Shown: positions 41,394-49,236 of the stretch, in pieces | Position numbering within the stretch: position 1 is the stretch's first letter | Layout of the letters: each line of letters opens with the position of its first letter | Assembly (NCBI RefSeq): GCF_000421225.1 | Contig: NZ_ATWL01000004.1 | Coordinates: forward strand, 235,499 to 299,498 | From: Ruania albidiflava DSM 18029 | GTDB taxonomy: Bacteria > Actinomycetota > Actinomycetes > Actinomycetales > Beutenbergiaceae | Direction of reading: 5' to 3' | DNA length: 64,000 bases | Notes under the pieces: generated by a model | Seen by the model: the letters and a program-made list of their open reading frames with translations, nothing else | Databases searched by the model: none | Told to the model about the DNA's origin: nothing | Position numbers and translations under genes: made by a program

Positions 41394-42443
41394 GTGCCGG
41401 AGAAGCTGCGCGTCGTGGTGGCGCTGGACCTGGCCGAAGAGCTCTGCGCCCGGATCGAGGAGATCGAGCCGCGCTGCGAGGTGGTCCGCGACCACCGGCT
41501 CTACCACCCGCAGCGGGTGGTCGCCGACTGGAGCGGCGACCCTGAGCACCGGCGTACGCACGAGGAGCAGGCCGCCTTCGAGGGGATGGTGGACTCCGCC
41601 GACGCGCTGTTCGGTGTGCCGGACGTGGACGCCGCCGCGCTCGCGCGCACTGTGGCCGCCAACCCGAGGCTGCGCTGGGTCCACACCACGGCGGCCGGCG
41701 GCGGTGGGCAGGTGCGTGCGGCGAACCTGGGCGCTGAGGCGCTGCAGCGCGTCACCTTCACCACCAGCGCCGGGGTGCACGGGGTGCCGCTGGCCGAGTT
41801 CGCCCTGTTCGGGGTGCTCGCCGGGGCCAAGGACCTGCCGCGGCTGCAGCAGCAGAAGGCCGACCGCACCTGGACCGGTCGCTGGGAGATGCGCCAGCTG
41901 GACGAGCTCACCGTGCTGGTGGTCGGGCTCGGCGGGATCGGCCGCGCCGCGGCCGCGAAGTTCGCCGCCCTGGGTGCCACCGTCTGGGGCACCACCCGGA
42001 GCGGGGAAGAGGTCGACGGCGTGGCTCGCCTGGTCCCGATCGAGGACCTGGTCTCGGTGATGGGGGACGTCGATGCGCTCGTGGTGACCCTGCCCGGCAC
42101 GGACCGGACCGAGGGGCTCATCGACGACGAGGTGTTCTCCGCAGCCAAGCCGGGGCTGATCGTGACCAACGTGGGCCGCGGGAGCGTGATCGACGAGCCG
42201 GCGCTGGTGCGCGCCCTGGACAACGGTCAGGTGTCCTTCGCCGCACTGGACGTGTTCGCCACCGAACCACTGCCGGCCGACAGCCGGCTGTGGGAGCACC
42301 CGAACGTCGTGGTCAGCCCGCACACTGCCGCACTGAACCACAGCGAGCCGGAGCGGATCGTGCGGCTGTTCGCCGAGAACGCCACCCGGTTGCTGGACGG
42401 CCGCCCGCTGCGCAACGTGGTGGACACCGTCGAGTTCTACTGA
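41394..42443 (+). CDS. D-isomer-specific 2-hydroxyacid dehydrogenase
   Basis: 349 residues from GTG 41394 with GAAGGAGGA upstream. The NAD domain has VVGLGGIGRAAAAKFAALGA and the catalytic Arg in NVGRGSVIDEPAL; the Glu lies in DVFATEPLPADSRLW and the His in VVSPHTAALNH. It reduces a 2-keto acid (glyoxylate, hydroxypyruvate or similar) to the D-hydroxy acid. It runs into the IclR gene 11 bases later, so the pair is one transcript and the dehydrogenase is a likely target of that regulator. Confidence 0.88.
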   Translation: MPEKLRVVVALDLAEELCARIEEIEPRCEVVRDHRLYHPQRVVADWSGDPEHRRTHEEQAAFEGMVDSADALFGVPDVDAAALARTVAANPRLRWVHTTAAGGGGQVRAANLGAEALQRVTFTTSAGVHGVPLAEFALFGVLAGAKDLPRLQQQKADRTWTGRWEMRQLDELTVLVVGLGGIGRAAAAKFAALGATVWGTTRSGEEVDGVARLVPIEDLVSVMGDVDALVVTLPGTDRTEGLIDDEVFSAAKPGLIVTNVGRGSVIDEPALVRALDNGQVSFAALDVFATEPLPADSRLWEHPNVVVSPHTAALNHSEPERIVRLFAENATRLLDGRPLRNVVDTVEFY

Positions 42444-42454
42444 GACCGGCGACG

Positions 42455-43261
42455 ATGGCAACCGGCCAGGGCCGCGACGGGGCGCACGAGTCCGGGCTGC
42501 ACCGTGACCCGGCTCCGGCGGTCACCCGCAGCCTGCGCATCCTCGGGCTGCTCGCCGATTCCAGCGGGACGGCACTCACCCTCTCCGACATCGCCCGGGC
42601 GCTGGGCCTGGCGAAGTCCTCCACGGCGAACCTGTGCCTGGCCCTGGAGCAGGGGGAGATGATCCAGCGCACTGCGGAGGGCTACCGGTTGGGTCGCCGC
42701 ACTGCTGAGCTCGGCGGTGCGTACGCGCTGGGGTTCAACCAGGTGCGGGAGTTCTTCGACGTGTGCGCCGCCTCCCCGGCGCTCGCCGGCCAGGTGGTGC
42801 AGATCGCCATGCTGGACGGCGCCGACGTGCTGTACCTGGCCCGCCACGAAGGCCGGGCACCGTACAGTCTCGGCACCCCGATCGGCTCCCGCCTGCCCGC
42901 GGCGCTCAGCGCCACCGGCAACGCCATCCTGGCCACCATGGACGAGCAGCAGGTCGCCGACCTGCTCGCCGGTGAGCAGGTCCGCGCGGTGGCCGAACCG
43001 GCCCCGCGGCACCTGGACGACCTGCTCGCCCGGGTGCGAGAGGTACGCCAGCGAGGCTACGCCGTCGACCGTGGGGAGTCCTTCGCCGGCGTCATCGGGG
43101 TGGCGGTGCCGTTGACGCCTTGGTCGCCCAGCGATCCGCTGCTGGCCATCGGGGCAGCCCTGCCGGCCGAGGGCACCGACGAGCCGACGGTGCACGAGGT
43201 CGCGGCAGCCCTGCAGGAGGCAGCCCGGCAGCTGACCAACCCGCTCGCCGTGCGCGCCTGA
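42455..43261 (+). CDS. IclR-family transcriptional regulator
   Basis: 268 residues. The N-terminal winged helix (about 20-85) has AVTRSLRILGLLADSSGTAL, LSDIARALGLAKSSTANLC and GYRLGRRTAELG. The effector domain (about 95-255) has LYLARHEGRAPYSLGTPIGS and GYAVDRGESFAGVIGVAVPL, the IclR ligand pocket region. It follows the 2-hydroxyacid dehydrogenase by 11 bases. A hairpin-containing 77-bp repeat begins 6 bases after its stop. Confidence 0.9.
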   Translation: MATGQGRDGAHESGLHRDPAPAVTRSLRILGLLADSSGTALTLSDIARALGLAKSSTANLCLALEQGEMIQRTAEGYRLGRRTAELGGAYALGFNQVREFFDVCAASPALAGQVVQIAMLDGADVLYLARHEGRAPYSLGTPIGSRLPAALSATGNAILATMDEQQVADLLAGEQVRAVAEPAPRHLDDLLARVREVRQRGYAVDRGESFAGVIGVAVPLTPWSPSDPLLAIGAALPAEGTDEPTVHEVAAALQEAARQLTNPLAVRA

Positions 43262-43267
43262 TCCCCA

Positions 43268-43344
43268 CCCGCGAACGCTCCCCTTCGCGGCGACACGCCG
43301 GGCGCGGGCCGCGAAGCAGGGCGTTCGTGATCAGGTGGGTCAGT
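43268..43344. repeat. 77-bp direct repeat, copy 1 (contains stop codon and terminator hairpin)
   Basis: Identical to 47431-47507 except one base (C/T at about 43285/47448). It contains an imperfect 20-bp hairpin (arms 43272-43291 and 43308-43327, mismatched in the middle) and, at its right end, the TGA stop and part of the last codon of the leftward epimerase gene. It acts as the terminator between the convergent IclR and epimerase genes. Confidence 0.9.
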
Positions 43345-44209
43345 GCATGGCGATGGTCTGCACGGCCCGCAGGTGATCCCGGATGAACCGGTTCGCATGG
43401 GCGGCCAGGTCGTCGGAGTCGACCCACAGGTTTCGCCAGATACCCAACGTGTTGGACAACGAGGCGCTCACGACTGCGCTCGAGAAGGATTCGAACACGA
43501 TCGGCCCGTCGAACCCCGATCGCGCCAGCGCGCGGAAGGCGCTGTCGAAGTCCACTGTGCCGGTGCCCAGGTAGCCCCTGTGGCTCTCGCCGATGTGGAA
43601 GTAGCGCAACCGGTCGCCGGCGTCGAGAATCGGTTCGAGCATCCCGGACTCCTCGATGTTCATGTGGTAGGTGTCCAGGTGCAGATGCACGTTCTCGTGG
43701 CCCACCTCCGCCAGGAAGTCCAGACCAGCGCGGGCAGTGTTGGCGATGTTGGTCTCGTACCGGTTCACGATCTCCAGGGACAGCTCCACGCCCGCGTTCG
43801 CAGCCGCGTCCCCGAGGCGGCGCAGTGCGGCCGCGGCGGTCGCACGGTTCCTTGGCGTGGCCGGAGTCAGGTACTTCTGCATCGCGGAGTAGATCACCCC
43901 GCACAACGCCGTACCCCCGGCCTCGGCGACGACGTCGATCGCCCGCAGCAGCAGGTCCTCACCGCGGCGCGAGGTCGCCTCGTCCTGGCTGGACAGGTCG
44001 GTCTGCGCCGACAAGCCCAGTGACGCGGTCATGGCTAGACCGTGCTCGTCCAAGACCCGCCGCACCTGCGCACCGTCGAAGGTGTGCGGGTCCATCAGTG
44101 GAACCTCGAGCAGGTCGAAGCCCGCGGCGCGCGCGCCGTGTGCGGCTCGGACGAGTCCTGCTTCGTCGAAGACGCCGGTGAAGACCAGACCATGGACACC
44201 GATCTGCAT
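43340..44209 (-). CDS. Sugar phosphate isomerase/epimerase, ketose 3-epimerase (DTE/DPE) type
   Basis: 289 residues, TIM barrel. It matches D-tagatose/D-psicose 3-epimerase organisation: the four metal ligands are in LSLEIVNRYETN (Glu), LHLDTYHMNIEE (Asp), YFHIGESHRGYLG (His) and PIVFESFSS (Glu). These enzymes epimerise free ketoses at C3 with Mn2+ or Co2+; related ones act on L-ribulose or on tetrulose phosphates. ATG 44209 has AGGAGGTCACC upstream. It is the last gene of a leftward ribose-type ABC operon whose ATPase is broken. Its stop lies inside the 77-bp repeat. Confidence 0.88.
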   Translation of the reverse strand: MQIGVHGLVFTGVFDEAGLVRAAHGARAAGFDLLEVPLMDPHTFDGAQVRRVLDEHGLAMTASLGLSAQTDLSSQDEATSRRGEDLLLRAIDVVAEAGGTALCGVIYSAMQKYLTPATPRNRATAAAALRRLGDAAANAGVELSLEIVNRYETNIANTARAGLDFLAEVGHENVHLHLDTYHMNIEESGMLEPILDAGDRLRYFHIGESHRGYLGTGTVDFDSAFRALARSGFDGPIVFESFSSAVVSASLSNTLGIWRNLWVDSDDLAAHANRFIRDHLRAVQTIAMH

Positions 44210-44258
44210 GGTGACCTCCTTGTGGAGTGCCGGTCGAGGCGTGCAGCCGCGAGCCGGG

Positions 44259-45371
44259 TTATTGAGGGTTGGTGGTGGTAGGCACGGGCAGGGTGGGGCC
44301 GTCCGCCCCAGATCCACGTCTGCGCAGCCGGGTGGGCAGGGCGTCGACGAGCGAGGCCCCGAGAAGCACCACTGCCAGAGCCAGGAACTGCAGCTGTGTT
44401 CCTGCGTTCCCGGGGACGACGATCAAGATCGAGGCATTCAGCCAGACGATCAGCAGTGCGGCCAGGAGCACACCGCTGAGCCGCCCGATGCCACCGGTGA
44501 TGGCCACGCCGCCGAGCACTGCGATCGTGATAGCCGGCAGGGCCATACCGGCTCCGCTGGTGCCGGCGTCCGGTCGGGCCGAGGCGAACTGTGCCACGGT
44601 GTAGATCGCGACCAGACCGCTGACCAGGCCGGAGGCGACGAACGCGAGCAGCTGCGTGCGGCGAGTCTGGATACCTGCCCACTGTGCCGCGGTCGTGTTC
44701 GTACCGATGGCGTACAGCGACCGCCCGTACGTGGTGCGGTTCAGCAGCAGCCAGGCAACCACTGCCACCGGGAGGACGAAGGTGAACATCCCGAGCGGCA
44801 CCAGCGGGAAGTACTGACCGATCACAGGCAGCTCGATCGAGTCCGCAGCGGAGTACAGCCCAGCGATCCGCGCACCGGAGATCGGGCTCGCACCGGTGAT
44901 CACCAGAGCGATCGACTGGTAGGCGTAGTACGTCGCGAGCGTGGTGATCAACGCCGGATAGCCAAAATAGGCAGTGAGCACACCGTTCACACCGCCGAGC
45001 AGCATGCTTGCCAGCAGCGCCACCACGACTGCCGAGGCCAGGGACCAGCCTGCGTTCACATACAGGATCCCGAAGATCATGCCGACGACGGAGACCATCG
45101 ATCCGACCGACAGGTCGATGCTGCCCCGGCCAGTGGTGATCACGAACAGCTCAGCGAGCGCAAGCAGTGCCAACGGCACGTAGTTGATCAGCGAGCTGGC
45201 CAGGTAGTCGGAGTTGAACGACCCGGTGGTGACACCTACCGAGTCCAGGATGGTCATCCCGATCAGCAGCACCAGGATCAACGCCAGCAGCAGCACGTTG
45301 CGGTCACGGAGGCCACCGCCCTCAGTCCACCGCCGGATCTGTGCAGCCAGGCTGCGGTGACGTGCGCTCAT
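44259..45371 (-). CDS. Ribose-type (RbsC family) sugar ABC permease, second copy
   Basis: 370 residues with about ten hydrophobic helices. RbsC-family features are ELFVITTGRGSIDLSVGSMV near 85-105 and GTNTTAAQWAGIQTRRTQLL in the cytoplasmic loop, followed by GGVAITGGIGRLSGVLLAAL. ATG 45371 overlaps the upstream permease stop by ATGA. Two permeases with one ATPase suggest a heterodimeric channel as in rhamnose and autoinducer-2 importers. With the ATPase truncated and no binding protein in view, transport probably fails unless parts are supplied elsewhere. Confidence 0.87.
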   Translation of the reverse strand: MSARHRSLAAQIRRWTEGGGLRDRNVLLLALILVLLIGMTILDSVGVTTGSFNSDYLASSLINYVPLALLALAELFVITTGRGSIDLSVGSMVSVVGMIFGILYVNAGWSLASAVVVALLASMLLGGVNGVLTAYFGYPALITTLATYYAYQSIALVITGASPISGARIAGLYSAADSIELPVIGQYFPLVPLGMFTFVLPVAVVAWLLLNRTTYGRSLYAIGTNTTAAQWAGIQTRRTQLLAFVASGLVSGLVAIYTVAQFASARPDAGTSGAGMALPAITIAVLGGVAITGGIGRLSGVLLAALLIVWLNASILIVVPGNAGTQLQFLALAVVLLGASLVDALPTRLRRRGSGADGPTLPVPTTTNPQ

Positions 45372-46378
45372 GGTGCTCTCCTCGCACGTTCCCGGAGCAG
45401 GTCTGTCCCCACGGCGATGATGATGAACAGTCCGACGAAGAGGAATGCCAGCTGGGACGGCCAACCCAGCTGGGTGACACCGGAGCGCACCGACTGCACC
45501 AGGAGGGCGCCCAGCAGGGTGCCGACCACAGAACCGCGACCGCCCATGATCGACGTGCCTCCGATGACGACGGCCGCGATGACCTCGAGCTCCTTGCCCT
45601 GACCGACCGACTGGTCCAGTGTCGAGGTGCCCGTGGCGATGGTGATGCAGGCGGAGAGACCGACCATCACTCCGGTGAGCGCGTAGACCCAGACCAGTCG
45701 AGGTCGGACCGCGATACCTGCCAGCCGGGCTGCTTCCTGGTCGCCGCCGATCGCATAGAGGTTTCGTCCGGGCCTGGTGTAGCGCAGGAACCACCAGGCC
45801 GCCGCGACAGCGACCACGGCGATGGCGAACGAGTGTGGGACCCCGAAGGTGGAACCGGCCGCGCCACGTCCGAACACGCTCAGCGTGCCGGGGATGCCGT
45901 TGACCGTCGAGGAGTCGAACACCCGGTAGCCGATGTAGAGGAACAGGTTCCAGGTGCCGAAGGTGATGATGATCGGGTGTACCCGCCCGTAGGCGACCAG
46001 CACCCCGTTGACCGTCCCGAGCAGCGCCCCGACCGCCATCGCGACCAGCACTGCGGGCAGGAGCGGAAGGTTCACCGTCACCAACAGCTTCGCAGTGATC
46101 ACGGCGCAGACCATGATCATCCCGGCGATGGAGACGTCGATCCCCGCTGTGATGATCACGAACGTCATGCCGATCCCCATCAGCGCTACTGGGGCGACCG
46201 CCACGAGCAAGGGGCCGATCGATCCTAGGGTGAGGAAGGACGGGGTGAACAGACCCAGCAGCACCCAGAGCACTGCGACCACCACGAGGAGCACGACCTC
46301 CTGACCGGTGACTACCGGCGGGAGGATGCGTCCGATCGCCTGGCGGCCCGCGGAAGGATCGGTCTCGGTGGCAGTCAT
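45368..46378 (-). CDS. Ribose-type (RbsC family) sugar ABC permease, first copy
   Basis: 336 residues, about ten helices. The RbsC motifs are GMTFVIITAGIDVSIAGMIM, GGDQEAARLAGIAVRPRLVW and GGTSIMGGRGSVVGTLLGA. The start ATG 46378 overlaps the ATPase stop by one base (TGATG) and the end overlaps the next permease by four, so it is fully embedded in the operon. The substrate is probably the ketose or polyol handled by the downstream epimerase. Confidence 0.87.
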   Translation of the reverse strand: MTATETDPSAGRQAIGRILPPVVTGQEVVLLVVVAVLWVLLGLFTPSFLTLGSIGPLLVAVAPVALMGIGMTFVIITAGIDVSIAGMIMVCAVITAKLLVTVNLPLLPAVLVAMAVGALLGTVNGVLVAYGRVHPIIITFGTWNLFLYIGYRVFDSSTVNGIPGTLSVFGRGAAGSTFGVPHSFAIAVVAVAAAWWFLRYTRPGRNLYAIGGDQEAARLAGIAVRPRLVWVYALTGVMVGLSACITIATGTSTLDQSVGQGKELEVIAAVVIGGTSIMGGRGSVVGTLLGALLVQSVRSGVTQLGWPSQLAFLFVGLFIIIAVGTDLLRERARRAP

Positions 46379-47430
46379 CAGCTCTCCTCTCCGACCTGAC
46401 CGGCGGCGATGGCCAGGACCTCTGCCTGGCTCGCCGTGGGTGGCAGCTCGGCGGTGATCGCTCCCGCGCGGAAGATGAGGATCCGGTCGGAGATCCGCAG
46501 TACCTCACCCAGGTCCGTGGTGATCACCAGCACGGCGGCACCCTCGTTCGCGAGGTCGGAGACGATCTGGTGGATCTCCTCCTTCGCGCCGACGTCCACC
46601 CCCTGGGTGGGTTCGGCGAGTACCAGCACCTCCGGTTGTTCCACCAGCTGCCGGGCGAGCACCACCTTCTGCGCGTTCCCGCCGGACATCGACCGCACCG
46701 GCACTCGCTCGCTCGGGGTCTTGATCGCCAGCCGGTCGATCAGCCGGCGGGCGATCGAGCGTTCTGCCCTGGGGCTGACCCAGCCGGGGAGCCGGGAGAG
46801 CAGGTTCAAGGAGCCGATGCCGATGTTGAAGGCGATCGACTGGAACGAGAAGGTGCCCTGCTGCGACCGGTTCGCCGGCACCATCCGGATGCCACGTTGC
46901 TTCGCGTGCGCAGGGGACCGCACTGCCCGTGTGCTCGTGCCGATGCGGACCGTGCCGCTGGCGCTCTTGCGGAGACCGTAGATCACGTCTCCGACCTCGG
47001 CGGCCCCGGAGCCGACCAGCCCGTACAGTCCGACGATCTCGCCCCGGTGCACCGTGAGGCTGACATCCTGGAAAGCCCCGTCCAGGGTGAGCTGTTCCAG
47101 GACCAGCATCGGCTCCCCGGCGGCTGCGGCACTGCGCACCCCCTCGGCAAGCTCACCGCCGACCATGCGTTCTGCGATGACCCGGACGCTCAGGTTCTCG
47201 ATCGGGTCGCACGAGACGGTCTGACCATCGCGCATGATCGTGACCTGGTCGGCGATCTCGAAGAGCTCGTCCAGGCGGTGCGAGATGTACACGATCGAGA
47301 CGCCGTCGCTGGCCAGCCGACGGATGACGTCGAAGAGGACGTCGATCTCGTTCTGAGTCAGGATCGCACTGGGCTCATCGAGGATGAGGATGCGGGCGTT
47401 CTCCAGGAGCGCCTTGGCGATGGAGACGAG
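46378..47430 (-). pseudogene. Sugar ABC transporter ATPase (RbsA/XylG type), N-terminus missing
   Basis: Only the last 350 or so codons of a normally 500-residue twin-domain ATPase remain. Homology starts abruptly at LVSIAKALLENARILILDEP (codon 47428-47430), i.e. just before Walker B of the first domain, then continues through YISHRLDELFEIADQVTIMR and the complete second domain (LYGLVGSGAAEVGD, MSGGNAQKVVLARQL, VLAEPTQGVDVGAKEEI). Walker A and the signature of domain one are gone, and the break coincides with the edge of the 77-bp repeat. The remaining frame has no proper start. An internal ATG at 47292 could make only the second domain. Confidence 0.88.
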
Positions 47431-47507
47431 CCCGCGAACGCTCCCCTTTGCGGCGACACGCCGGGCGCGGGCCGCGAAGCAGGGCGTTCGTGATCAGGTG
47501 GGTCAGT
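47431..47507. repeat. 77-bp direct repeat, copy 2
   Basis: Second copy of 43268-43344, 4163 bases away, with one mismatch. Hairpin arms are 47435-47454 and 47471-47490. Its right end contains the TGA stop of glpD and its left end touches the broken ATPase gene. Confidence 0.9.
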
Positions 47508-49236
47508 CCTCCAGGGGCACCAGCGGCACGAGGTCCTCGACCACCTGCCGGGCGGCCTCGGCCTCCGCGTCGGTGAGGGTGCTCAGCGCAACCTCCTCGG
47601 CCTCGGCGGCGGCGGTGTAGGAGGCGATCTCCTTCCGGGTCGTTTCCTCGTCCCAGCCGAGCAGGGGAGCCACGATCCCGGCGATCTCCTCCAGCGCACC
47701 CACTCCCCGGTCGCGCTGCTCGTAGAACAACCGGATCCGGCGCATCACCACGTCCTCCAGGTGCAGCGCACCCTCGTGCGTCACCGCCATCACCACCTCC
47801 GCGCGCAGGTACGCGGGCGCGGCTGCCAGCGGCTCGCCCAGCTCCGGGTCGTCGTCCACCAGGTCGGTGATCACGCTGAGGTCCGAACCGTACCGGCCGA
47901 GCAGGTGCTCCATCCGGGCGCGGTCCCAGCCGTACTTCGCCGCGATGCGTGGTGCCTGCCGGGTCAGCGCCTTCAGCCGCGGCGCCCCGACCAGCGGCGT
48001 CTCCGGGGTCACCGACGGGTTTGCCTTCGCCCGCACCTCCCCGAGCGCGTGGTCCACGGCATGCTCGGCCATCAGCCGGTAGGAGGTGAGCTTGCCTCCG
48101 GAGATCACCGTCAGCCCCGGCGCCGGCTCGACGATCACGTGGTCGCGGGACACCTTCGTGGAGGACCCGCCGTCGGTCGCGGGCTGCACCAGCGGCCGTA
48201 GCCCGGCGTACACCCCGATCAGGTCGTCGAACGTGAGGTCGGAGGAGAGCACGTCGTTGGCGTGCTCCAGGATGTAGTCCACGTCCGCCCGGGTGGCCAC
48301 CGGGTGCAGCCGGTCCTGCTCCCAGGGGGTGTCGGTGGTGCCGATGATCCAGTACCGCTGCCACGGGATGATGAACAGCACCGACTTCTCCGTGCGCAGG
48401 AACAGACCGGTGTCGCCCTGGATCCGCTCCTTCGGGATCACCACGTGGATGCCCTTGGACGCCAGCACCTTCAGTCCTTCCTGCCCGTCGGCCAGCGCCT
48501 CGGTGGACTCGGTCCACACCCCGGTCGCGTTGATCACGTGCCGGGCGTGGATGGTGTGCCGCTGCCCGGTCTCCAGGTCCACGACCTCGGCGCCGGTGAC
48601 CCGCCCGCCGGGCCCGTTGACGAAGTCCACCACCTGGGTGCGGGAGGCCGCGTGCGCCCCGAACGACTGCGCAGTGCGCACCAGCGTCATCACCAGCCGG
48701 GCGTCGTCCACGCGCGCGTCGTAGAACTCGATGCCGCCGACCAGCTTGTCCCGGCGCACGTCCGGGAAGAGCTTGCGCACCCCGTCCCGGGAGAGGTGCT
48801 TCTGCGTGGGCACCGCCTTGCCGCGCATGCCGACCACCGCCATCGCGTCATACAGCCCGATGCCCAGCGCGCTGTAGATGCGCTCGATCACCGGCTGCTT
48901 CAGCGGCCAGATGAACGGCTGCGCCTTGACCAGGTGTGGGGCGGTCCTGGTGAGCAGGATGCCGCGCTCGCGCAGCCCCTCCGCCACCAGCTTCAGGTCC
49001 AGCTGGTACAGGTAGCGCACCCCGCCGTGCACCAGCTTGGAGGACCAGGAGGAGGTGCCTGCGGCCCAGTCCTGCATGTCCACGATGCCGGTGCGCAGCC
49101 CGCGGGTGACGGAGTCCAGCACGATGCCGGCACCGGTCACCCCGCCACCGACCACCAGGACGTCGAGCGGCTCCTCGCCACTCATCGCGGCCAGGGCCTC
49201 GGTGCGGGTCTGGGTTGTCAACGCTGAACTGGCCAC
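47503..49236 (-). CDS. glpD: FAD-dependent glycerol-3-phosphate dehydrogenase (GlpD2 type)
   Basis: 577 residues, the length of actinobacterial GlpD2. The FAD motif DVLVVGGGVTGAGIVLDSVT is followed by GTSSWSSKLVHGGVRYL, HVINATGVWTE, GIHVVIPKERI, WIIGTTDTPWEQDRLHP and GVYAGLRPLV. It oxidises sn-glycerol-3-phosphate to DHAP at the membrane and passes electrons to quinone. Erythritol-phosphate dehydrogenases (EryB) are close relatives, so a polyol phosphate substrate is possible given the neighbours. Start GTG 49236 has CAGGAGAG upstream. The stop is inside repeat copy 2. Confidence 0.9.
   Translation of the reverse strand: MASSALTTQTRTEALAAMSGEEPLDVLVVGGGVTGAGIVLDSVTRGLRTGIVDMQDWAAGTSSWSSKLVHGGVRYLYQLDLKLVAEGLRERGILLTRTAPHLVKAQPFIWPLKQPVIERIYSALGIGLYDAMAVVGMRGKAVPTQKHLSRDGVRKLFPDVRRDKLVGGIEFYDARVDDARLVMTLVRTAQSFGAHAASRTQVVDFVNGPGGRVTGAEVVDLETGQRHTIHARHVINATGVWTESTEALADGQEGLKVLASKGIHVVIPKERIQGDTGLFLRTEKSVLFIIPWQRYWIIGTTDTPWEQDRLHPVATRADVDYILEHANDVLSSDLTFDDLIGVYAGLRPLVQPATDGGSSTKVSRDHVIVEPAPGLTVISGGKLTSYRLMAEHAVDHALGEVRAKANPSVTPETPLVGAPRLKALTRQAPRIAAKYGWDRARMEHLLGRYGSDLSVITDLVDDDPELGEPLAAAPAYLRAEVVMAVTHEGALHLEDVVMRRIRLFYEQRDRGVGALEEIAGIVAPLLGWDEETTRKEIASYTAAAEAEEVALSTLTDAEAEAARQVVEDLVPLVPLED

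What the first reader, a model, noticed from the sequence alone, without database searches (positions are those of the whole stretch)
43268..47507. Broken ABC operon enclosed by a 77-bp direct repeat that carries a terminator
Seen: 43268-43344 and 47431-47507 match in 76 of 77 bases and are 4163 bases apart. Each contains a 20-bp imperfect hairpin plus the stop codon of a different leftward gene (epimerase, glpD). Between them lie an epimerase, two permeases and an ATPase cut exactly at the repeat edge (47430/47431). Removing one repeat unit would leave IclR and glpD convergent on a single terminator. Inference: a 4.16-kb segment was inserted or duplicated through recombination at a terminator, or a deletion ran from inside the ATPase to the repeat. 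Terminators acting as recombination seams would be an unusual way of exchanging catabolic modules.
Basis: partly seen in the sequence, partly recalled or inferred. Interest (0 to 1): 0.8.

Follow-up and report, generated by a model that had tools for sequence, protein, structure and literature searches.

The report
Gene-loss scar sealed by copied hairpin
Compared with two sister species, this Ruania bacterium lacks the first part of a sugar-transporter ATPase gene and the next two genes, and a 77-base near-identical copy of the hairpin from the operon's other end sits at the break, likely copied there while the DNA was being repaired; it looks like ordinary gene loss rather than a new way of swapping genes.

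Summary
In detail: 43268-43344 and 47431-47507 match in 76 of 77 bases and enclose an epimerase, two permeases and a headless ATPase. Two congeners, G003 and G007 (Candidatus Ruania gallistercoris), carry IclR > < epimerase-permease-permease-ATPase(complete)-SBP-DeoR < glpD in one piece, so the operon already lay beside glpD. The window lacks 2.6-2.7 kb: ATPase codons 1-149, the binding-protein gene and the DeoR gene, with no close counterpart elsewhere in the assembly. The repeat is one of at least 74 related palindromes of about 60 bp in this genome, 62 of them within 100 bp of a gene end. Copy 1 sits where G007 has a related palindrome; copy 2's place has none in G003 or G007. The pair is an outlier: 76/77, against at most 67/77 for the other 2555 pairs. 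Best reading: a deletion whose junction received a copy of the neighbouring terminator-like hairpin, probably by template switching, with 5 bp (TCAGT) and 1 bp of junction microhomology. Known kinds of event and element; modest interest.

The parts
42455..43261 (+). IclR-family regulator gene, left neighbour; converges on the epimerase
   Evidence: PF01614 and PF09339; orthologues face the epimerase in G003 (79%) and G007 (78%)
43268..43344 (.). Copy 1 of the 77-bp repeat: complete terminator-like palindrome between IclR and the epimerase; likely the source copy
   Evidence: related palindrome at the same place in G007 (L053 890-948, 42 bits)
43270..43329 (.). 60-bp palindromic core of copy 1 (family model R1)
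   Evidence: 69.4 bits on +, 63.7 on -; it is one of the 41 sequences R1 was built from
43340..44209 (-). Xylose-isomerase-like TIM-barrel epimerase gene; stop codon lies in copy 1
   Evidence: PF01261; nearest NCBIfam model D-psicose 3-epimerase, under its cut-off; 82% to G003 and G007
44259..45371 (-). ABC sugar permease 2, open
   Evidence: PF02653; 85% to G003
45368..46378 (-). ABC sugar permease 1, open
   Evidence: PF02653; 87% to G003
46378..47430 (-). 3' part of the sugar ABC ATPase gene: residues 150-499 of the G003 protein; most of the first nucleotide-binding domain lost, the second kept
   Evidence: longest start-to-stop frame begins at 47292 (304 aa; listed as P0002)
47431..47507 (.). 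Copy 2 of the 77-bp repeat, at the deletion junction; truncated on its left relative to copy 1's outer stem. Ambiguous bases: C47431 (also native ATPase) and TCAGT 47503-47507 (native glpD end)
47433..47492 (.). 60-bp palindromic core of copy 2 (family model R1)
   Evidence: 67.6 bits on +, 61.3 on -; it is one of the 41 sequences R1 was built from
47503..49236 (-). glpD (FAD-dependent glycerol-3-phosphate dehydrogenase), right neighbour; stop codon lies in copy 2; start codon uncertain
   Evidence: PF01266 and PF16901; 87% to G003 and 85% to G007, where it lies just upstream of DeoR-SBP-ATPase on the same strand

Best explanation
The window carries a sugar ABC-transporter operon that, unlike its orthologues in two sister Ruania species, lacks the first 149 ATPase codons, the binding-protein gene and a DeoR gene, and at the break sits a near-identical copy of the palindrome from the operon's far end, which was likely copied there by template switching while the break was being repaired. 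Shown here: gene order in the relatives, no close counterpart of the missing genes in this assembly, a related palindrome at copy 1's place in G007 and none at copy 2's place in G003 or G007, and the outlier identity of the pair. Inferred: that the relatives' order is ancestral; that a repair or replication strand running out of the ATPase (1 bp of shared sequence) copied 43268-43344 and then rejoined at the glpD stop codon through the 5-bp TCAGT shared by the epimerase and glpD ends. The same two junctions would arise from a tandem duplication starting at copy 1 followed by a short-homology deletion. Inferred consequence: without the first nucleotide-binding domain, the binding protein and the 5' end of the operon, the transporter should be dead, while the copied hairpin probably ends glpD transcription. 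Two 76/77 direct repeats now flank the remnant and could let it drop out cleanly later.
For:: contiguous IclR > < epi-perm-perm-ATPase (500 aa in G003)-SBP-DeoR-glpD in G003 and G007; the window aligns in two blocks that stop at 47431 and restart at 47506 against G003 (47497 against G007); in the own assembly the best SBP hit is 28% identical, there is no DeoR hit at E<=1e-25, and the DNA search gives only short pieces at 66-87%, the 87% piece being the retained ATPase end itself. P0079, a fragment 97% identical to the window's ATPase over 63% of it, has 77 further residues upstream of the break, so a very close relative keeps that part of the gene. G007 has a 59-bp palindrome of the same family at copy 1's place, and R1 finds none (E<=1) between DeoR and glpD in G003 or G007; 76/77 for this pair, next best 67/77 of 2556 pairs; copy 1 has the full outer stem, copy 2 lacks its left arm. 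TCAGT is native at the glpD end in both relatives and at the epimerase end in G003.
Against: Microhomology at the left junction is only 1 bp, and TCAGT at the epimerase end is not present in G007 (TTAGT). In G003 the palindrome at copy 1's place is of another sequence (only a weak R1 match there, L052 5015-5064, 14.5 bits, E 0.16), so orthology of copy 1's place rests on G007 alone. Copy 2 could have existed downstream of glpD before the deletion and been made alike by gene conversion; 77 bp cannot exclude that. The assembly has 60 contigs and no reads were available. The remnant genes show no more amino-acid change than the intact glpD in the window lineage (replacement/silent 0.29-0.63 against 0.68 for glpD and 0.58 for IclR), so either the deletion is recent or the remnant still serves some purpose. 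Of the 7 congeners searched only two carry the syntenic cluster.
Confidence: 0.72

Rival explanations
1. Pre-existing palindrome plus ordinary deletion: the lineage gained a family member downstream of glpD, a deletion later ran from the ATPase into its left arm, and gene conversion made it match copy 1.
For: At least 74 family members, 62 within 100 bp of a gene end, so a member downstream of glpD would be unremarkable; copy 2's left arm is cut, as a deletion end inside it would do.
Against: No R1 hit between DeoR and glpD in G003 or G007; identity to copy 1 extends through 15 of 15 flank bases, an outlier; needs three events.
Confidence: 0.17
2. Assembly error: reads were misjoined at the 77-bp repeat.
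For: Draft assembly of 60 contigs; long palindromes are hard for short reads (recalled).
Against: A misjoin would be expected to leave ATPase-N, SBP and DeoR elsewhere in the assembly (98.5% complete), and no close counterpart is found; no R1 match lies inside the ATPase genes of G003 or G007; the copies differ at one base.
Confidence: 0.06
3. Insertion or exchange: a 4.16-kb catabolic module was inserted between IclR and glpD by recombination at a terminator.
For: Flanking direct repeats; in the five other Ruania genomes the fetched glpD neighbourhoods (11.5-12.5 kb) hold neither the operon nor this IclR at over 40% identity, so the cluster may have joined glpD at some earlier time.
Against: In G003 and G007 the cluster lies there complete and without the repeat pair; protein identities to G003 are alike inside (82-87%) and outside (79-88%) the segment.
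Confidence: 0.03
4. The palindrome is an active mobile element that inserted and caused an adjacent deletion.
For: Dispersed, fixed length (72 of 74 are exactly 60 bp), enriched in this genome (65 strict matches against 9 in G007 and 0-2 in six other congeners).
Against: No Y1 transposase (PF01797) in any of 8 Ruania genomes, though other transposases were not sought; copy 2 carries copy 1's own flanks, which differ at other members; members differ by paired stem changes, as expected of old selected hairpins.
Confidence: 0.02

Closest known systems
Deletion junctions with templated (filler) insertions, as ascribed to microhomology-mediated template switching (PMC8421209, on human cancer genomes; only the start of its abstract seen, in the listing)
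   Same: Loss of sequence, a short insert near-identical to a nearby stretch, microhomology at one junction
   Different: Here bacterial and seen once, in one assembly; the template is a long palindrome; the left junction has only 1 bp in common
Families of dispersed stem-loop repeats in bacterial genomes (PMC2267715, abstract and found passages seen; REP, BIME and ERIC recalled)
   Same: Tens of copies sharing a hairpin, enriched in one lineage
   Different: Nearly all exactly 60 bp with long arms, mostly near gene ends, no Y1 transposase found in the genus
Terminators built of repeated words, such as paired uptake signals in Neisseria and Pasteurellaceae (PMC1852404, found passages including part of the abstract seen)
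   Same: A repeated word forms hairpins at gene ends
   Different: No T-run follows the hairpin at the two copies here; the shared word is CGCGAACGC...GCGTTCGCG; no link to DNA uptake was tested
Inverted repeats placed at gene ends in E. coli, mostly parts of intrinsic terminators (PMC6060812, found passages seen)
   Same: Hairpin-forming repeats concentrated just after stop codons
   Different: There not presented as one sequence family in the passages seen; here one family with conserved outer and variable inner arm
Rhamnose/ribose-type sugar ABC transporter operons (RhaS, RbsA, AraG)
   Same: SBP, double-NBD ATPase, two BPD_transp_2 permeases, TIM-barrel epimerase in the relatives
   Different: The window copy lacks the SBP and the first NBD; the listed NCBIfam scores of these proteins are under the curated cut-offs, so the substrate is unknown

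Membership tests
Deletion with templated insertion | Sequence present in relatives is missing at the site | tested here: met
   2616-2700 bp missing against G007 and G003
Deletion with templated insertion | Insert is a copy of a nearby sequence, with direction known | tested here: met
   76/77, outlier of 2556 pairs; a palindrome at copy 1's place in G007, none at copy 2's in G003 or G007
Deletion with templated insertion | Microhomology at both junctions | tested here: inconclusive
   TCAGT (5 bp) right, C (1 bp) left
Rho-independent terminator | Stable G+C-rich hairpin at a gene end | tested here: met
   copies 1 and 2; family: 62 of 74 within 100 bp of a gene end, against 156 of 1480 random places
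Rho-independent terminator | Run of T directly after the stem | tested here: not met
   none of the 3 terminator-like sites lies at either copy; sequence read. Not filed as a canonical intrinsic terminator; it may work like a terminator. The other family members were not scanned for it
Rho-independent terminator | RNA ends at the hairpin in vivo | not testable with these tools
   no RNA data
REP/BIME elements | RAYT (Y1 transposase, PF01797) in the genome | tested here: not met
   0 of 8 Ruania genomes; the search rings in 5 of 14 control genomes
REP/BIME elements | Conserved tetranucleotide at the foot of the hairpin (recalled) | not tested
   -
Insertion sequence or MITE insertion | Target-site duplication flanking the copy | tested here: not met
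   copy 2 is flanked by the ATPase at codon 150 on one side and the glpD end on the other, with 2.6-2.7 kb missing; no shared flank seen
Dispersed stem-loop repeat family | Many copies with shared, paired structure | tested here: met
   41 of the 42 members found aligned (one of 59 bp left out): 89.8% of cells paired; 42 cells changed on both sides against 24.3 in shuffles (0 of 500 reach it) and 5-21 in slid controls; the number of pairs with such a change does not exceed shuffles (6 against 5.6, 261 of 500)

The most novel reading that the evidence does not exclude
Long palindromic terminator-like hairpins act as preferred template-switch points in this lineage: when an operon breaks, the repair machinery copies the hairpin from the neighbouring gene end onto the break. 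That caps the truncated operon with a ready-made terminator and leaves direct repeats through which the remnant can later be lost cleanly, a two-step route of operon decay.
Probability: 0.2. Interest if true: 0.55.

Novelty: new member of a known kind. Interest (0 to 1): 0.27.

Why it matters
It shows a well-resolved intermediate of operon loss: the headless ATPase, both junctions and the likely source of the inserted bases can all be read off against two relatives. It also draws attention to a family of at least 74 palindromes of about 60 bp, mostly near gene ends, in one Ruania genome, which may be its bidirectional transcript ends. It does not support gene exchange through terminators.

Tried and rejected
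Insertion or module exchange: rejected by the complete syntenic clusters in G003 and G007. Misassembly: disfavoured, since no close counterpart of the missing genes lies elsewhere in the assembly. REP/RAYT mobility: no PF01797 in 8 of 8 Ruania genomes. Known RNA family: two hits, both far under the gathering scores and neither at the repeats, in 42000-48500. Decay of the remnant: replacement/silent counts in the window lineage 0.29-0.63 against 0.68 for glpD and 0.58 for IclR, no sign of decay. The idea that 59/60 identity of the cores is itself proof of copying: dropped, because other pairs reach 58/60; the claim rests on the 77-bp frame and flanks. An earlier comparison of 38 members by alignment (next best pair 85.9%) is replaced by that of 72. 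Literature: eight searches; among the titles and abstract starts listed I saw none on this palindrome family. One search returned no paper, four of the listings show only 10-12 of 28-51 papers, and the library holds open-licence papers only, so this is weak evidence of absence. Microhomology this short cannot separate one-step template switching from duplication followed by deletion.
Full report
Observation. The 77-bp direct repeat is real: 43268-43344 and 47431-47507, 76 of 77 bases, 4163 apart. Pfam and NCBIfam place the enclosed genes as a xylose-isomerase-like TIM-barrel epimerase, two BPD_transp_2 permeases and the later part of a double-domain sugar ABC ATPase. The NCBIfam scores listed are below the curated cut-offs, so the substrate stays unknown.

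What the repeat is. BLASTN of the repeat against the own genome gives 53 rows (40 of 97 candidates scored), many of them the two strands of one palindrome. The common core is 60 bp: CGCGAACGC at one end, GCGTTCGCG at the other, arms of 22 bp. BLASTN finds it in only one of the seven congeners, one 23-base match in G006. A strict pattern finds 65 in this genome, 9 in G007, and 0, 1, 2, 0, 2 and 2 in G001-G006; the control pattern finds 0 in all eight. In the 51 genomes outside the genus it finds 0-11, some of them plainly not palindromes. A covariance model of 41 members returns 150 strand matches in this genome, which is the scoring cap, and 2-52 in the seven congeners, at lower scores where listed (E-values are rough and the 41 match by construction). 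From 70 fetched loci I collected 74 distinct members (up to 3 substitutions in the outer arms, at least 15 of 22 complementary pairs), 72 of them exactly 60 bp. On the alignment of 41 members, 89.8% of cells pair, and cells changed on both sides number 42 against 24.3 in shuffles and 5-21 in slid controls; the number of pairs with such changes does not exceed shuffles.

Where the family lies. By a rough gene call on G+C at codon positions, 62 of the 74 have a coding-like frame ending within 100 bp and pointing at them, against 156 of 1480 random places in the same loci; 16 of 74 have this on both sides, against 14 of 1480. By a second version of the gene lie between convergent genes, 26 between tandem genes, 5 between divergent genes, 6 inside an open frame and 3 are unclear; 73 other adjacent gene pairs in the same loci (overlapping loci not removed) are 12, 48 and 13. 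An earlier count with other settings gave 19 convergent, 9 tandem, 0 divergent, 7 inside, 3 unclear of 38. These are therefore mostly hairpins of gene ends, likely transcript ends, although no T-run follows the two window copies and no RNA data were available.

The order in the relatives. The window's ATPase fragment equals residues 150-499 of the G003 protein (84%). Nucleotide alignment of the window to G003 stops at 47431 and restarts at 47506 (47497 against G007). Between these points G003 has 2700 bp (L052 9245-11944) and G007 2616 bp (L053 5055-7670), where the window has 71 bp plus ambiguous ends. The SBP and DeoR genes and the ATPase 5' part have no close counterpart elsewhere in the assembly: best SBP match 28%, DeoR none at E<=1e-25, DNA only short 66-87% pieces, the 87% piece being the retained end of the ATPase itself. 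In the other five congeners no IclR match reaches E 1e-40, and the fetched glpD neighbourhoods hold none of the cluster at over 40% identity; G002 and G005 carry the operon elsewhere. So the cluster was probably beside glpD in the common ancestor of the window's species, G003 and G007. In a database of about 5.8 billion proteins, of which the 7998 candidates sharing most words were scored, a 320-residue fragment P0079 is 97% identical to the window's ATPase over 63% of the query and has 77 residues upstream of the break: a very close relative retains this part of the gene. Its source is not stated, and its last residues do not look like ATPase.

Which copy is new. G007 has a 59-bp member of the same family between IclR and the epimerase (L053 890-948, 42 bits), the place of copy 1. 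G003 has another hairpin there (best 80 nt -54.8 kcal/mol, against a mean of -42.5 and a lowest of -52.2 in 20 shuffles) and only a weak R1 match (14.5 bits, E 0.16). Neither has an R1 match (E<=1) between DeoR and glpD, the place of copy 2. Copy 1 has its outer stem complete, reaching to the stop codons; copy 2 lacks the left outer arm. Over the 77-bp frame the two copies agree in 76 bases while the next best of 2556 pairs agree in 67, and the 15 bases to the right of the core agree 15 of 15, against at most 13 elsewhere. So copy 2 is most simply a copy of copy 1 including copy 1's private flank.

Mechanism. Two junctions describe the product: ATPase codon 150 joined to the left edge of copy 1's sequence (1 bp in common), and copy 1's right edge joined to the glpD end (5 bp, TCAGT, in common; native at glpD in both relatives and at the epimerase end in G003, TTAGT in G007). 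Template switching during repair or replication makes both in one event; a tandem duplication of 43268-47431 followed by a short-homology deletion makes them in two. I commit to template switching as the likelier of the two, without a test that separates them. Prior presence of a palindrome at glpD plus conversion is the main rival.

Consequence and verdict. The remnant genes are open and show no excess of amino-acid change in the window lineage, so the deletion is probably recent. Loss of the first nucleotide-binding domain, of the binding protein and of the operon's 5' end should make the transporter inactive (inference from family knowledge). Kind of event and kind of element are both known; the value lies in the clarity of the scar and in the palindrome family.

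Noticed in passing
own genome, 74 places in 70 loci searched (L001, L002, L004-L008, L057-L088, L198-L228): A family of near-perfect palindromes of almost fixed length (60 bp) with paired changes in the arms, enriched in this Ruania genome (65 strict matches against 9 in G007 and 0-2 in six other congeners); function unproved.
   Followed up: partly
L076 1508-1567, L083 1501-1560, L088 1501-1560, L086 1509-1568: Some members have palindromic centres such as TGAATCGGTTCA or AAGCGCTT in place of the GACACGCCGG loop; these resemble LacI-family operators (recalled, not tested).
   Followed up: no
L195, L196, L197 downstream of glpD; L052 5030-5109: Other Ruania species have other palindromes at these gene ends (GATCTGG...GCCAGATCGACG type; a long hairpin in G003), as if species had their own repeated gene-end hairpins.
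   Followed up: no
L084 1501-1575 and L085 1280-1354: Two other family members share a 13-base identical flank run, the next candidate for a copied hairpin; it may be chance in G-rich flanks.
   Followed up: no
L052 13841-15900: In G003 genes like those of another sugar ABC transporter lie upstream of glpD, where the window and G007 have a DeoR-type regulator and glpK.
   Followed up: no
P0079, last 25 residues or so: The tail of this database fragment does not resemble the ATPase and looks like read-through into sequencing adapter (recalled resemblance).
   Followed up: no
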